Below, in pieces: positions 48,089 through 52,559 of a DNA stretch of 64,000 nt (position 1 is its first letter; every line of letters begins with the position of its first letter). Position numbers and translations under genes: made by a program. Origin of the DNA: an uncultured Bacteroidota bacterium (GTDB taxonomy: Bacteria > Bacteroidota > Bacteroidia > UKL13-3); contig CAINMV010000031.1 of the NCBI GenBank assembly GCA_903850915.1, positions 1 through 64,000 of the forward strand, in the 5' to 3' direction. Under the pieces are notes generated by a model. It was not told the DNA's origin, did no database searches, and saw only the letters and a list, made by a program, of their open reading frames with translations.

Positions 48089-50752
48089 ATGTTAAATAAA
48101 ATAGTACTTATAAATTCAGCTTCTTACAGCAAAGCGGTGCTCAATTTAAACGTGGATTCGTTGCAGCTTGTTGGCCCTAACAACGTAGGTAAGAGCTCAA
48201 TTATTAATGCACTTAATTTCCTTTTTATTATTGATGGTAATAAAATGCAGTTTAGTGGCGATCGAAGTTTTCAAACTTCAATTCATTTTTATTTCCCATC
48301 GCACAACAAGAGTTACATTATATTTTCAATTAGCAAAAAAGGCGACTATTGTATTGTATTGCGACGCACCCCTGATAAGCAATTGGAATATTATAAAGTA
48401 GATAGTGGATATAAAGATGAGCTCTTTATTAAAACAACCAAAACACGAGAAACTATTATTGATTTCGAGGATTTTTTAATTGGTTTAGAGGCGCAAGGGA
48501 TAAAATACCACCTTTTACAAACACGCGAGGAAGTTTTTCAGTTGGTTTACCAGCGTGATATGAATTCACAAGGCGTAGTATGGTTAAAAGACACCATCAA
48601 ATCGCGAGGTCTGAGCAACAGCTTTACCAAAATTTACATGAATTTGTTTAACCCGAAGCTAATCAAAAGCGACACGTTAAAAGATTCATTAATTATTGCC
48701 GACAATCGAGAGAGTGAAAATGTAAGTTTTAGTGAAAGAGATAAATACAATTTATTAGAACTTGATAAATTAAAAAACCAGATAGACAAAATCTCATCGG
48801 TAAAAAACGACTTCCTCACCTTTAAAACAATATTCGAGAAATATCAAGAGAAGTACAACAAAACTGGGGAGCTTTACTATGAATTTTTAGAGAAGCACAA
48901 CCGTGACATTGAATTACTAGAAGAGCAAACAACGAGTTTAGAAGCTGAGATTGACAAGCTCCATCAGCGTATAAATGATGAATTAAATCCCGAGAAAGAC
49001 AAATTACTCATTCATATTGGTTCGCAGAAAAGCGAACTAAAAAACAAGACCGATGTATTTGAAGGCACCTACAATCAATTTAAAGAAATCAGCAGTTATG
49101 AGCCCATCGACTTCTTGAACGAGCAGATTTCTAATTTATCGGGGCCGAGAGCTGATATAGAATTTCGTTTGCAGACCGTTGCTCGTCAAAAAGTATCTAG
49201 TCAGGAGGTGATGGAGGAGATTCACGAGCTTCAAGATAAAATTGAGGCATTGAAAAAAGATGTAGAGAATTATGACAATTTACTCATCAACAATATCGCG
49301 GTAGATGACGATGTAAAAACCTTGCTAAATAGTGTATTGAGCAAAGAAGTATTGCGATTGCCAAAAGAGCGCATTCAAAAAATCGTAAACAAAGCCAACG
49401 ATTTACTTAAAATATTCGACGGTCAGATTGATATAAGCGAGTTAAAGAAAGAAACTGTTGAGAGCGTTGAGAAATACACAAAACAACTAACTAACTTTCA
49501 ATCGAAACTATTCGATTCCCAGGAGCTTTTAAAAGTGATGGTAGAGAAAGAAAGCTTCGAAAAGCAGCTATTAGATATTGACGCAAAAATATCAGATATA
49601 AACAAGAAAAAAGAGCGCATTGGCAACCAACATAATTTGCAACGGCAGATGGATGCTTTAAATGAAGAAATATCAATACTTTCAAACAAATTAATACCCG
49701 AGAGTGAAAAAAAGCTTGCTAAACTTCGCAAGGAGACTGCAGATGTAGAGCAGCTCATCAATAAAAAGAACGAGCAGAAAATTGACCTTACAAGCAGAAA
49801 GCGCGATTTAATTGTATGGCATAATGAGCTCCGCGATGAGAATTTAAGTCCGGTAGTACACAAATATGGAGAGGACAAAATTGACGCTGTGTATCGCAAA
49901 TTAAAAAATGAAAATCGCGATAAAAACGACTTAAAGATAAGTAAAGATGAGTCGTTTATGAACTTAAAACTCAAGCTAGACAATAACATTGCCAGCGAGC
50001 GGGAATTTATAAAATTTGTAGAAGATGAGATTGCAACTTTAAAAGACAAAGAACAAGCCATTGACACCCTTTTGCAATCGGTGGCCAACGACTTCTCCAT
50101 TCCGACCCTTGAGCTCTTGAATAAATTTAATGACTTTAAGGAATTCGTTAAACGCTTCAACACCCATTTATCGAACTATACCGTATCTAACATTGAAAAA
50201 ATATCGATTACTGTGGTCGACAATGAGCGTTTAATAAACGACTTAAAGAAGATTGGAAGTATCCAGGCCATCCCAAAAGACCTATTGTTATTGAACTTCA
50301 ACAAGCCTGATAACATTCAGATATTAGACCGTTATCTTAAATATTCGCGTAAAGTAGAGTTTAAAGAGATGTTTGAGTTAATTGTTGAGATTCAAAAAGG
50401 AGGCAAAAAAGAGCGCGTCGATATTAGCAAGCAAATTGAGAGTGATGGAACAGACCGTATGATTAAGCTATTTATATTCCTTACCTTAATTAAGTGGATG
50501 GTGGTAGATGAAGTTGAAAACAAAATTGTAATTTATATTGATGAAGGTGGGCAGTTTGGTAATATAAACCGGAAAGAAATTATTCGTTTCTGTAAAGAAA
50601 ACAATATTGTACCCATCTTTGCGGCACCTGATGGTATAGTGTTACCTGATATTGAAAAATACTATTTCCTAATACCTGATTCAGCCGGAAAGGTAATTGT
50701 TAATGAAACCCGTTCCATAAACGCCAAAACAAGCAATAACGATTATGTATAA
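48089..50752 (+). CDS. SMC-like ATPase of a MukB/MksB-type condensin
   Basis: The 887-residue protein has an N-terminal Walker A (GPNNVGKSS, 29-37). A long Lys/Glu-rich coiled-coil runs roughly from 230 to 720. A C-terminal head carries a signature-like SDGTDRM at 785-791 and Walker B IVIYIDEGG (Asp818, Glu819). The order of these parts is that of an SMC protein. The closing FCKENNIVPIFAAPDG resembles MukB/MksB heads. The coils are short and I see no clear globular hinge or zinc hook. Together with the next two genes it forms a likely SMC-kleisin-KITE complex that loads on or extrudes DNA. RecF/RecN-like or abortive-infection ATPases are alternatives. Confidence 0.7.
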   Translation: MLNKIVLINSASYSKAVLNLNVDSLQLVGPNNVGKSSIINALNFLFIIDGNKMQFSGDRSFQTSIHFYFPSHNKSYIIFSISKKGDYCIVLRRTPDKQLEYYKVDSGYKDELFIKTTKTRETIIDFEDFLIGLEAQGIKYHLLQTREEVFQLVYQRDMNSQGVVWLKDTIKSRGLSNSFTKIYMNLFNPKLIKSDTLKDSLIIADNRESENVSFSERDKYNLLELDKLKNQIDKISSVKNDFLTFKTIFEKYQEKYNKTGELYYEFLEKHNRDIELLEEQTTSLEAEIDKLHQRINDELNPEKDKLLIHIGSQKSELKNKTDVFEGTYNQFKEISSYEPIDFLNEQISNLSGPRADIEFRLQTVARQKVSSQEVMEEIHELQDKIEALKKDVENYDNLLINNIAVDDDVKTLLNSVLSKEVLRLPKERIQKIVNKANDLLKIFDGQIDISELKKETVESVEKYTKQLTNFQSKLFDSQELLKVMVEKESFEKQLLDIDAKISDINKKKERIGNQHNLQRQMDALNEEISILSNKLIPESEKKLAKLRKETADVEQLINKKNEQKIDLTSRKRDLIVWHNELRDENLSPVVHKYGEDKIDAVYRKLKNENRDKNDLKISKDESFMNLKLKLDNNIASEREFIKFVEDEIATLKDKEQAIDTLLQSVANDFSIPTLELLNKFNDFKEFVKRFNTHLSNYTVSNIEKISITVVDNERLINDLKKIGSIQAIPKDLLLLNFNKPDNIQILDRYLKYSRKVEFKEMFELIVEIQKGGKKERVDISKQIESDGTDRMIKLFIFLTLIKWMVVDEVENKIVIYIDEGGQFGNINRKEIIRFCKENNIVPIFAAPDGIVLPDIEKYYFLIPDSAGKVIVNETRSINAKTSNNDYV

Positions 50753-50812
50753 CATCCCTGTTAGCATAGCAAAAACAAAATCCAACAACAGCCTATAATT
50801 AGAATTTAGCCC

Positions 50813-52033
50813 TTGCTCATCGCCGAACCAAAAACCGTCCTCAACTTCCTCTCCGATAAATTTGATTTTATGTTGGAGTTGATTGCTATGAACAAGAGCG
50901 ATGCGATTATTCATGACGAAAAATTAAAAAAGCTGTGTAAAAAAGAAGGTATCGATTGGCAGAAACTCATCGACTATAAAATTATTCGAGAGCTTCAACA
51001 GGGAGACTATGAATTACGAAAGCCGATAGAGATTTTTATTAATTATATCAGTGAAGACTATAAACTAGACCTTCCAGAGAACATCCGCAAGTACTTTAAT
51101 TCTATAGAGGAAATTTACGAGAAGATGTTAAGCGAGGAGAATCCACAGTCCTTGCAGCGTTTGATATCGGGTATGATAGATGAGGTACAGCAATTTATTG
51201 AAACCATTGAAAGCAACACACGTAGTTTACTTAATGAAAGTAAAGAGTTAAAAGCCAACGTGCGAAAAATTGAGTACGTGGAAAAAATAAAAAGGGCCAC
51301 TTATTTTATCGATTTTTATATAGTTCCTTTAAATAAAATTTTAGATGCCAATCATAAAGGATCGGTAATTCACAAACTTAGTTTAGTGCGTGAGCAAGGA
51401 AATAAAGAGCGCATCAACCATCCTGACTTTGCGATCCGTTCTTTGTATGAGAAACTGTATAACCAGGTGATAAGTGCCAATGTGGAGCTGGTAAAAAACT
51501 CTAAGGTGCTAACAAAAGAATTGCTTCCACTTTTAGAACGCATTAAAACAGAGTCACAGATATTAGCTGGATTCATGGAATTTCTAAAAAAGCCAAATTC
51601 GTATGACACCCCCGATTTATTAAAACGTACCCGACATGCCACCTATGACCCTGATGCCTTTTTTGCGGCAAAAGATATTTGGGATCAGTTGGTAAAACAA
51701 GACGATATTGTGGTAAGCATGGCTGATGGGCAGCAGGAGTTAGAGTTGCCATGGGTATTTGATCGCGTGAAATACAAACGAATTATTACACAATCGCTTC
51801 CCATTAAAAACTATTTTCGATGGAGCAACGATCTCATTCAGCAGGAAGTGACAAAACAAGATTTCGATTTTGATAAATTCTTTGCCATGAGCGCGTTAAT
51901 TTTCGAAGATGACTTTCATATACAATTTGAAGATGAAGAGCGCGTAGAAGTTAAATTTAGTGGCCTCACGCTCGATGTACCCAACCTAACCATCGATCGC
52001 AAAACAAAAAATAGCATAAAGAACAAAAAATAA
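50813..52033 (+). CDS. Probable kleisin subunit, MksF/MukF/JetA-like
   Basis: The 406-residue, mostly helical protein has a predicted winged-helix-like N-terminus (DWQKLIDYKIIRELQQGDYELRKPIEIFINYI). A helical middle follows with QQFIETIESNTRSLLNESKELKAN. The C-terminal part is beta-rich and acidic. Size, helical layout and position between an SMC gene and a MukE-like gene fit MksF-type kleisins; the family call rests mainly on context. The start may be TTG at 50813 or ATG at 50870. It lies 60 bp after the SMC gene and 1 bp before the next. Confidence 0.6.
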   Translation: MLIAEPKTVLNFLSDKFDFMLELIAMNKSDAIIHDEKLKKLCKKEGIDWQKLIDYKIIRELQQGDYELRKPIEIFINYISEDYKLDLPENIRKYFNSIEEIYEKMLSEENPQSLQRLISGMIDEVQQFIETIESNTRSLLNESKELKANVRKIEYVEKIKRATYFIDFYIVPLNKILDANHKGSVIHKLSLVREQGNKERINHPDFAIRSLYEKLYNQVISANVELVKNSKVLTKELLPLLERIKTESQILAGFMEFLKKPNSYDTPDLLKRTRHATYDPDAFFAAKDIWDQLVKQDDIVVSMADGQQELELPWVFDRVKYKRIITQSLPIKNYFRWSNDLIQQEVTKQDFDFDKFFAMSALIFEDDFHIQFEDEERVEVKFSGLTLDVPNLTIDRKTKNSIKNKK

Positions 52034-52034
52034 G

Positions 52035-52559
52035 ATGGAGTACCCAAATCAACATCAACAAATTGTAAAAGAACTCTTAGATGGTAAATTTATTTTGTCG
52101 CAGAGTAATCCGCTTTATGAAATAATAAAGTCAAATATTGAGTTTTATAAAGACTTTTTCAAAGCTACCTTCGGCTATGATATTCTTCAGAAGAAAACCT
52201 ATTTCTTTTTAACGAGTGATGAAAGCAATGAAAAGCTATCAAGAGATATTACAATTTTTACGGGTATCATCTCATACGAATTAGATAATGAGGGGAAGAA
52301 TTTCCAAGATTTGATTCGATTTAGCATTTTCGAATATGAGCAAGTAGATTTTATGGTAAGGAATTCAATTTATTTTAATGTGCTTGAAAGCATTGATTTT
52401 GGTGATACCCGTCGTTTTTTATCGCGCCTTGCTAGGATTAACCTCATTGAAGAATTAGAAGGCGATAAATTTCGTTTCACCGAAGCTATTGATTTGTTCT
52501 TTGACTTTGCTCTCACCGTGATTGAGCAAAAGAAAGAAAAACAGGCAGGAAAGAAGTAA
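52035..52559 (+). CDS. Probable MksE/MukE-like condensin subunit
   Basis: The 174-residue protein has an N-terminal helical part, then YFFLTSDESNEKL and ITIFTGIISYELDNEGKN. A winged-helix region follows near 120-165 (DTRRFLSRLARINLIEELEGDKFRFTEAIDLFF). This profile, a small acidic dimer-like protein with paired winged helices, is that of MukE/MksE/JetB, which binds the kleisin. Its start codon lies one base after the previous stop, so the two proteins are translationally coupled. No JetD/MksG nuclease gene follows; a terminator and convergent rplQ come next. Confidence 0.6.
   Translation: MEYPNQHQQIVKELLDGKFILSQSNPLYEIIKSNIEFYKDFFKATFGYDILQKKTYFFLTSDESNEKLSRDITIFTGIISYELDNEGKNFQDLIRFSIFEYEQVDFMVRNSIYFNVLESIDFGDTRRFLSRLARINLIEELEGDKFRFTEAIDLFFDFALTVIEQKKEKQAGKK

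What the first reader, a model, noticed from the sequence alone, without database searches (positions are those of the whole stretch)
48089..52559. Compact three-gene SMC/kleisin/MukE-like operon without a nuclease partner
Seen directly: an 887-residue protein with Walker A (GPNNVGKSS), long coiled coil, signature-like SDGTDRM and Walker B (IVIYIDEGG). Two tightly spaced downstream genes (60 bp, then 1 bp) encode a helical 406-residue protein and a 174-residue winged-helix-like protein. Known: MukBEF, MksBEF and Wadjet JetABC share this make-up, but Wadjet adds JetD/MksG, and Mks/Jet operons usually place the SMC gene after the kleisin and MksE genes. Here the SMC comes first, its coils are short, no clear hinge is visible and no nuclease follows. 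Inference: a divergent Bacteroidota condensin, either for chromosome organisation or a nuclease-free relative of the anti-plasmid Wadjet system.
Basis: partly seen in the sequence, partly recalled or inferred. Interest (0 to 1): 0.78.

Follow-up and report, generated by a model that had tools for sequence, protein, structure and literature searches.

The report
Nuclease-free MukBEF-like condensin, SMC gene first
Three neighbouring genes encode a small DNA-looping (condensin) machine related to a bacterial anti-plasmid weapon that has no DNA-cutting part here, is inherited like an ordinary core gene, and is the only condensin we could find in a bacterial family that lacks the usual one.

Summary
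In detail: 48089-52559 encodes an SMC ATPase (887 aa), a kleisin (406 aa) and an MksE/KITE protein (174 aa). The predicted kleisin's best PDB match is MukF and the SMC's is MukB; the third protein matches Pfam MksE (8.7e-20). So it is a MukBEF/Mks/Jet-type complex in an unusual order (SMC-kleisin-KITE).

Relatives explain the missing nuclease. In three family members, several Flavobacteriaceae and others, a JetD-like Toprim gene sits between SMC and kleisin. A distant outgroup has kleisin-KITE-SMC-JetD. The window's order is that four-gene cassette rearranged and without the nuclease.

The two forms behave differently. Nuclease-bearing copies are shared between genera at 91-97% SMC identity where SecY is only 71-83% (horizontal, defence-like). 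In the window's family the SMC is in 32 of 35 genomes (SecY also 32 of 35), its tree shares 20 of 24 splits with SecY, and ScpA is absent from all 35. No JetD-like gene lies elsewhere in the window's genome.

Best reading: a Wadjet-type complex without its nuclease, working as a resident chromosome condensin. Loss of JetD giving MksBEF has been proposed; this family offers comparative evidence. Function is untested; gain/loss history within the family is unresolved.

The parts
48089..50752 (+). SMC-type ATPase (MukB/MksB/JetC-like, 887 aa); Walker A 29-37, coils about 217-396 and 461-695, apical conserved block 393-450, signature 784-791, Walker B 813-819
   Evidence: ORF; Foldseek top hit MukB E 1.5e-15, then Rad50, Smc5/6 and JetC; profile match to MukB/JetC-like SMCs 99.5%, E 1.5e-22; invariant motifs
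50813..52033 (+). MukF-like kleisin (406 aa, TTG start)
   Evidence: No family hit by sequence; AlphaFold model's best PDB match is MukF, E 3.8e-5 over 481 alignment columns, MukF also among the VIA-align matches with Z 10.8-12.6; conserved in all loci
52035..52559 (+). MksE/KITE subunit (174 aa)
   Evidence: Pfam PF21980 MksE E 8.7e-20, 72.1 bits against a cut-off of 27; below the NCBIfam MksE equivalog cut-off

Best explanation
The three genes encode a KITE-type SMC-kleisin complex of the MukBEF/MksBEF/Jet superfamily. Two SMC subunits are bridged by the MukF-like kleisin and its MksE partners and probably use ATP to extrude DNA loops. The lineage descends from a four-gene Wadjet-like cassette whose SMC gene is followed by a JetD-like Toprim nuclease. 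In the window's lineage the nuclease is absent and the complex was kept as a resident chromosome-organising condensin, in bacteria without a recognisable Smc-ScpAB. Shown here: subunit identities, conserved ATPase motifs, absence of the nuclease gene and of Smc and ScpA, near-universal and vertical inheritance in the family, and the contrasting horizontal spread of nuclease-bearing relatives. Inferred: loop extrusion, a chromosomal role, and loss (rather than gain) of the nuclease at the base of the group.
For: Subunit identity. Sole recognisable condensin: ScpA 0/35 in the family and no SMC over the Smc cut-off; one MksE in the genome. No JetD-like gene elsewhere in the window's genome. Presence in 32/35 family genomes, equal to SecY's 32/35. 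SMC tree against SecY tree: 20 of 24 splits shared (shuffled mean 0.27, maximum 3), Mantel r 0.82 without the window's genus with 0 of 2000 permutations as high, one strongly supported conflict. Strong constraint in the genus: trio 85-90% identical while neighbouring pgsA- and cdsA-like genes are 47-59%, dN 0.07-0.11 against 0.33-0.44. Nuclease-bearing relatives: JetD-like gene between SMC and kleisin (G028's copy passes the Pfam JetD_C cut-off); outgroup G363 has kleisin-MksE-SMC-JetD-like. Nuclease-bearing SMCs are 91-97% identical between genera whose SecY is 71-83% identical. Precedent: P. [quoted passage not shown]
Against: No experiment. Three family genomes lack the trio and also lack ScpA (G007, G010, G030), so it may be dispensable, although assembly gaps are possible. 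Many other Bacteroidia lack both ScpA and any MksE, so lack of a recognised condensin is tolerated and absence of ScpA is weak support for a housekeeping role. The gene neighbourhood is not conserved across the family. The nucleases of G014, G016 and G028 are only 31-36% identical while their trios are 56-78% identical, so the nuclease may have been regained or swapped. The root lies on a distant outgroup (about 19% identity). A trans-acting nuclease of another family is not excluded.
Confidence: 0.66

Rival explanations
1. The trio is still a plasmid-defence complex that works without a dedicated nuclease, by sequestering or compacting small circular DNA, or by recruiting an unrelated nuclease in trans.
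For: The closest nuclease-bearing relatives look like defence systems, and three family members carry a JetD-like gene inside the operon.
Against: No JetD-like gene in the window's genome or in 32 of 35 family genomes; JetD_C elsewhere in the family only in two genomes that carry a separate canonical Wadjet; near-universal presence and vertical inheritance are unusual for a defence system.
Confidence: 0.2
2. The trio is an accessory DNA-repair or replication-associated SMC complex (Rad50 or Smc5/6-like role), not a global chromosome organiser.
For: Foldseek also aligns the SMC with Rad50 and Smc5/6; three family genomes do without it.
Against: The partners are a MukF-like kleisin and MksE, not Mre11 or Nse subunits, and MukB is the best SMC match.
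Confidence: 0.12
3. On history only: the nuclease-free form is the older state and the JetD-like gene was added several times to a chromosomal condensin, turning it into a defence system.
For: The window's nuclease-free genus branches first inside the group; the three nucleases in the family are far more divergent than their trios.
Against: The outgroup already has the nuclease right after the SMC gene, the same SMC-nuclease adjacency as in the four-gene form, which favours an ancestral nuclease; the tree needs 6 changes and does not settle direction.
Confidence: 0.3

Closest known systems
MksBEF of Pseudomonas aeruginosa
   Same: Three-part SMC/kleisin/MksE complex; [quoted passage not shown]
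   Different: There the order is kleisin-MksE-SMC and it works beside Smc-ScpAB; here the SMC gene is first, the SMC is only 887 aa, the MksE falls far below the NCBIfam equivalog cut-off, and no ScpA is present
Wadjet / JetABCD / MksBEFG
   Same: Same SMC, kleisin and KITE classes; the four-gene relatives carry a JetD-like Toprim protein and the SMC of the Nonlabens copy matches DUF3584, the JetC family
   Different: The window has no JetD; even the four-gene relatives have the order SMC-JetD-kleisin-KITE and a shorter nuclease (261-279 aa against about 390)
MukBEF of Escherichia coli
   Same: MukB and MukF are the best structural matches
   Different: MukB is far longer (1467-residue chain); sequence similarity is not detectable by phmmer or hmmsearch against the PDB
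Smc-ScpAB
   Same: Also a KITE-type SMC complex
   Different: No match to the Smc or ScpA families above cut-off; those genes were not found in this family

Membership tests
MukBEF/MksBEF/Jet superfamily (KITE-type SMC complexes) | MukB/JetC-like SMC with intact Walker A, signature and Walker B | tested here: met
MukBEF/MksBEF/Jet superfamily (KITE-type SMC complexes) | MukF-like kleisin | tested here: met
   Foldseek top hit MukF E 3.8e-5; met by fold only, sequence profile comparison was weak
MukBEF/MksBEF/Jet superfamily (KITE-type SMC complexes) | MksE/KITE subunit | tested here: met
   PF21980, E 8.7e-20
MukBEF/MksBEF/Jet superfamily (KITE-type SMC complexes) | Head-kleisin-neck contacts in the assembled complex | not testable with these tools
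   No complex prediction available
Classical MksBEF (Pseudomonas/Corynebacterium type) | Gene order mksF-mksE-mksB | tested here: not met
   SMC gene first in the window and in the trio loci
Classical MksBEF (Pseudomonas/Corynebacterium type) | NCBIfam MksE equivalog above cut-off | tested here: not met
   19.5 bits against 400
Wadjet (JetABCD) | JetD Toprim nuclease in the operon | tested here: not met
   Absent in the window; no JetD_C or JetD-like gene in the genome
Wadjet (JetABCD) | Restriction of small circular plasmids | not testable with these tools
   Needs an experiment
Smc-ScpAB | Smc and ScpA above family cut-offs | tested here: not met

The most novel reading that the evidence does not exclude
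An SMC-first Wadjet lineage was disarmed and became the resident, sole chromosome condensin of a bacterial family that has lost Smc-ScpAB, while its armed sisters still spread as defence cassettes: a natural series showing defence-to-housekeeping conversion of an SMC complex.
Probability: 0.5. Interest if true: 0.78.

Novelty: new variant of a known kind. Interest (0 to 1): 0.63.

Why it matters
Whether MukBEF and MksBEF are retired defence systems is an open proposal (PMC10586767), and the condensin of some Bacteroidota is unidentified (PMC10197239). Here armed and unarmed versions of one operon occur inside a single family, and the armed and unarmed forms differ in how they are inherited, so the conversion can be tested by adding or removing one gene.

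Tried and rejected
Sequence searches of the kleisin against Pfam, NCBIfam, PADLOC and the PDB gave nothing significant; only the fold identified it. The PDB sequence search with the SMC profile returned only coiled-coil matches. Profile comparison of the kleisin with standard Mks/Jet kleisins was not significant. Profile comparison of JetD-like with canonical JetD gave low probability (4.7%, E 0.0085) but aligned the E, DxD and LEQE motifs; Pfam, PADLOC and conserved residues carry that assignment. The VIA-align ranking mixes generic helical bundles with MukF, so it is not used alone. Mutual exclusion with Smc-ScpAB was tested: 0 of 35 nuclease-free against 3 of 11 nuclease-bearing genomes have ScpA (my tally), but ScpA is also missing from many Bacteroidia without the trio, so this is weak. 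The SMC has no full-length match on plasmids. dN/dS could not be given because dS is saturated. Defence-island context of nuclease-bearing loci was not clear: only L177's two downstream genes gave weak defence-model hits.

Full report
The observation. Searches confirm three co-directional ORFs at 48089-50752, 50813-52033 and 52035-52559, 60 bp and 1 bp apart. They lie between a phosphatidate cytidylyltransferase-like gene and the convergent operon that ends in rpoA and the L17 ribosomal protein gene, on a 74 kb contig of a 2.94 Mb, 99.65% complete genome.

Identity of the parts. The third protein matches Pfam MksE (PF21980) at 8.7e-20, well over its cut-off. The SMC scores below the cut-offs of the AAA and SMC_N families, but its AlphaFold model matches MukB best (E 1.5e-15), followed by Rad50, Smc5/6 and JetC, and its profile matches a profile of MukB/JetC-like SMCs along most of its length (99.5%, E 1.5e-22; that profile includes the two outgroup rows, so it is not fully independent). 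The middle protein has no significant sequence match, yet among 350,542 PDB chains the best Foldseek match of its model is MukF from MukBEF, the only match below 0.001 (E 3.8e-5), with more MukF chains at ranks 2, 3 and 5-7. Model confidence is moderate (mean pLDDT 74 and 69). The ATPase motifs are essentially invariant across 82-83 relatives. The coil apex holds a conserved block (FDGxID), a probable small hinge, whose fold was not resolved.

Distribution. In the window's family (35 genomes) the SMC is found in 32; SecY, an essential gene by general knowledge, is also found in 32 by the same kind of search. Gene order is the same in the loci examined, while the flanking genes change between genera. 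In an even draw of 345 genomes of the phylum only the window's genome and one other had a full-length match, so the system is concentrated in a few Bacteroidota lineages, mostly uncultured. ScpA is absent from all 35 family genomes and no Smc reaches its family cut-off there, though ScpA is found in 283 of 345 genomes across the phylum. ParB is present in the window's genome. The trio's MksE is the only one in the window's genome.

The missing nuclease. In G014 and G016 an extra gene (261 and 279 aa) lies between SMC and kleisin, and in G028 one of 265 aa. Its conserved residues are E143-N, D186-x-D188-xx-G and LEQ near the C-terminus, matching the TEN, GDID-x-HG and RLEQE motifs of canonical JetD proteins from the same phylum. 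G028's copy passes the Pfam JetD_C cut-off, and the G028 and Nonlabens copies match PADLOC JetD. The same four-gene order SMC-JetD-kleisin-MksE occurs in Mesonia, Arenibacter, Nonlabens and other genomes. A distant outgroup has kleisin-MksE-SMC-JetD-like (G363). In both layouts the nuclease directly follows the SMC, so the three-gene order is most simply the rearranged cassette with the nuclease removed. The SMC of the Nonlabens copy matches DUF3584, the JetC family. The search with the JetD-like profile finds no copy in the window's genome, nor elsewhere in the family beyond the three in-operon genes.

Two modes of inheritance. In the family the SMC and SecY trees share 20 of 24 splits (shuffles: mean 0.27, maximum 3), and distances correlate (r 0.82 without the window's genus, 0 of 2000 permutations as high); there is one strongly supported conflict, G009 with G014. 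In the nuclease-bearing Flavobacteriaceae the SMC is 91-97% identical between genera whose SecY is 71-83% identical; family pairs with SecY 70-75% have SMC 67-73%. So armed copies move between genera, and unarmed copies in this family are inherited with the species. Within the window's genus the trio is 85-90% identical while the adjacent lipid-synthesis genes are 47-59% and SecY is 92-94%.

What is not settled. The tree needs at least six changes of nuclease state and does not fix their direction. The three nucleases inside the family are 31-36% identical although their partners are 56-78% identical, which suggests regain or replacement, or faster evolution. Absence of ScpA is weak evidence of a housekeeping role, because other Bacteroidia families lack ScpA and MksE altogether. 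Loop extrusion and a chromosomal role follow from the family, not from data here.

Known background. Wadjet is JetA/B/C (kleisin, KITE, SMC) plus the Toprim nuclease JetD; it has been proposed that MksBEF of P. [quoted passage not shown] In C. glutamicum and Pseudomonas the order is mksF-E-B-G (PMC10123090). A Hi-C study found no known condensin in two gut Bacteroidetes, one of which shows an arm-alignment signal, and suggested unidentified SMC complexes (PMC10197239); that study concerns other lineages than this family. No paper found in the searches made describes the SMC-first operon, but subscription journals and preprints are mostly not held.

Verdict. A new variant of a known kind: an SMC-first, nuclease-free MukBEF/Jet-type complex, probably a disarmed Wadjet relative kept as a resident condensin.

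Noticed in passing
L176 8839-9403 (Bacteroidota SSA2): The JetD-like gene of the four-gene form is broken into two ORFs and no MksE was found downstream: a decaying copy, in a genome that has ScpA.
   Followed up: partly
L116 8700-13115: Two genes with Por secretion-system tails (318 and 1149 aa) sit between the SMC and kleisin genes.
   Followed up: partly
L092 4792-10584 (G051): Standard-order kleisin/MksE/SMC (1051 aa, MukB N-terminal domain) followed only by a 171 aa protein without a Pfam match, in a genome without ScpA: another candidate condensin.
   Followed up: no
L087 4369-5307; L089 10670-11623: Fourth genes (312 and 317 aa) after kleisin-MksE-SMC have Toprim-like motifs (CEN, CDWD); the L087 one was scanned and has no Pfam match: probably divergent JetD/MksG.
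   Followed up: partly
relatives G036, G038, G040, G042-G046, G050, G052, G056, G057: Genomes of other Bacteroidia families with neither ScpA nor any MksE match: no recognised condensin at all.
   Followed up: no
L175: A trio contig labelled Candidatus Competibacteraceae (Pseudomonadota) groups inside the Bacteroidota trios; either transfer or a misbinned contig.
   Followed up: no
L084 5111-11666; L085 2994-9582: Two family members (G015, G031) carry a separate canonical JetABCD Wadjet as well as the nuclease-free trio.
   Followed up: partly
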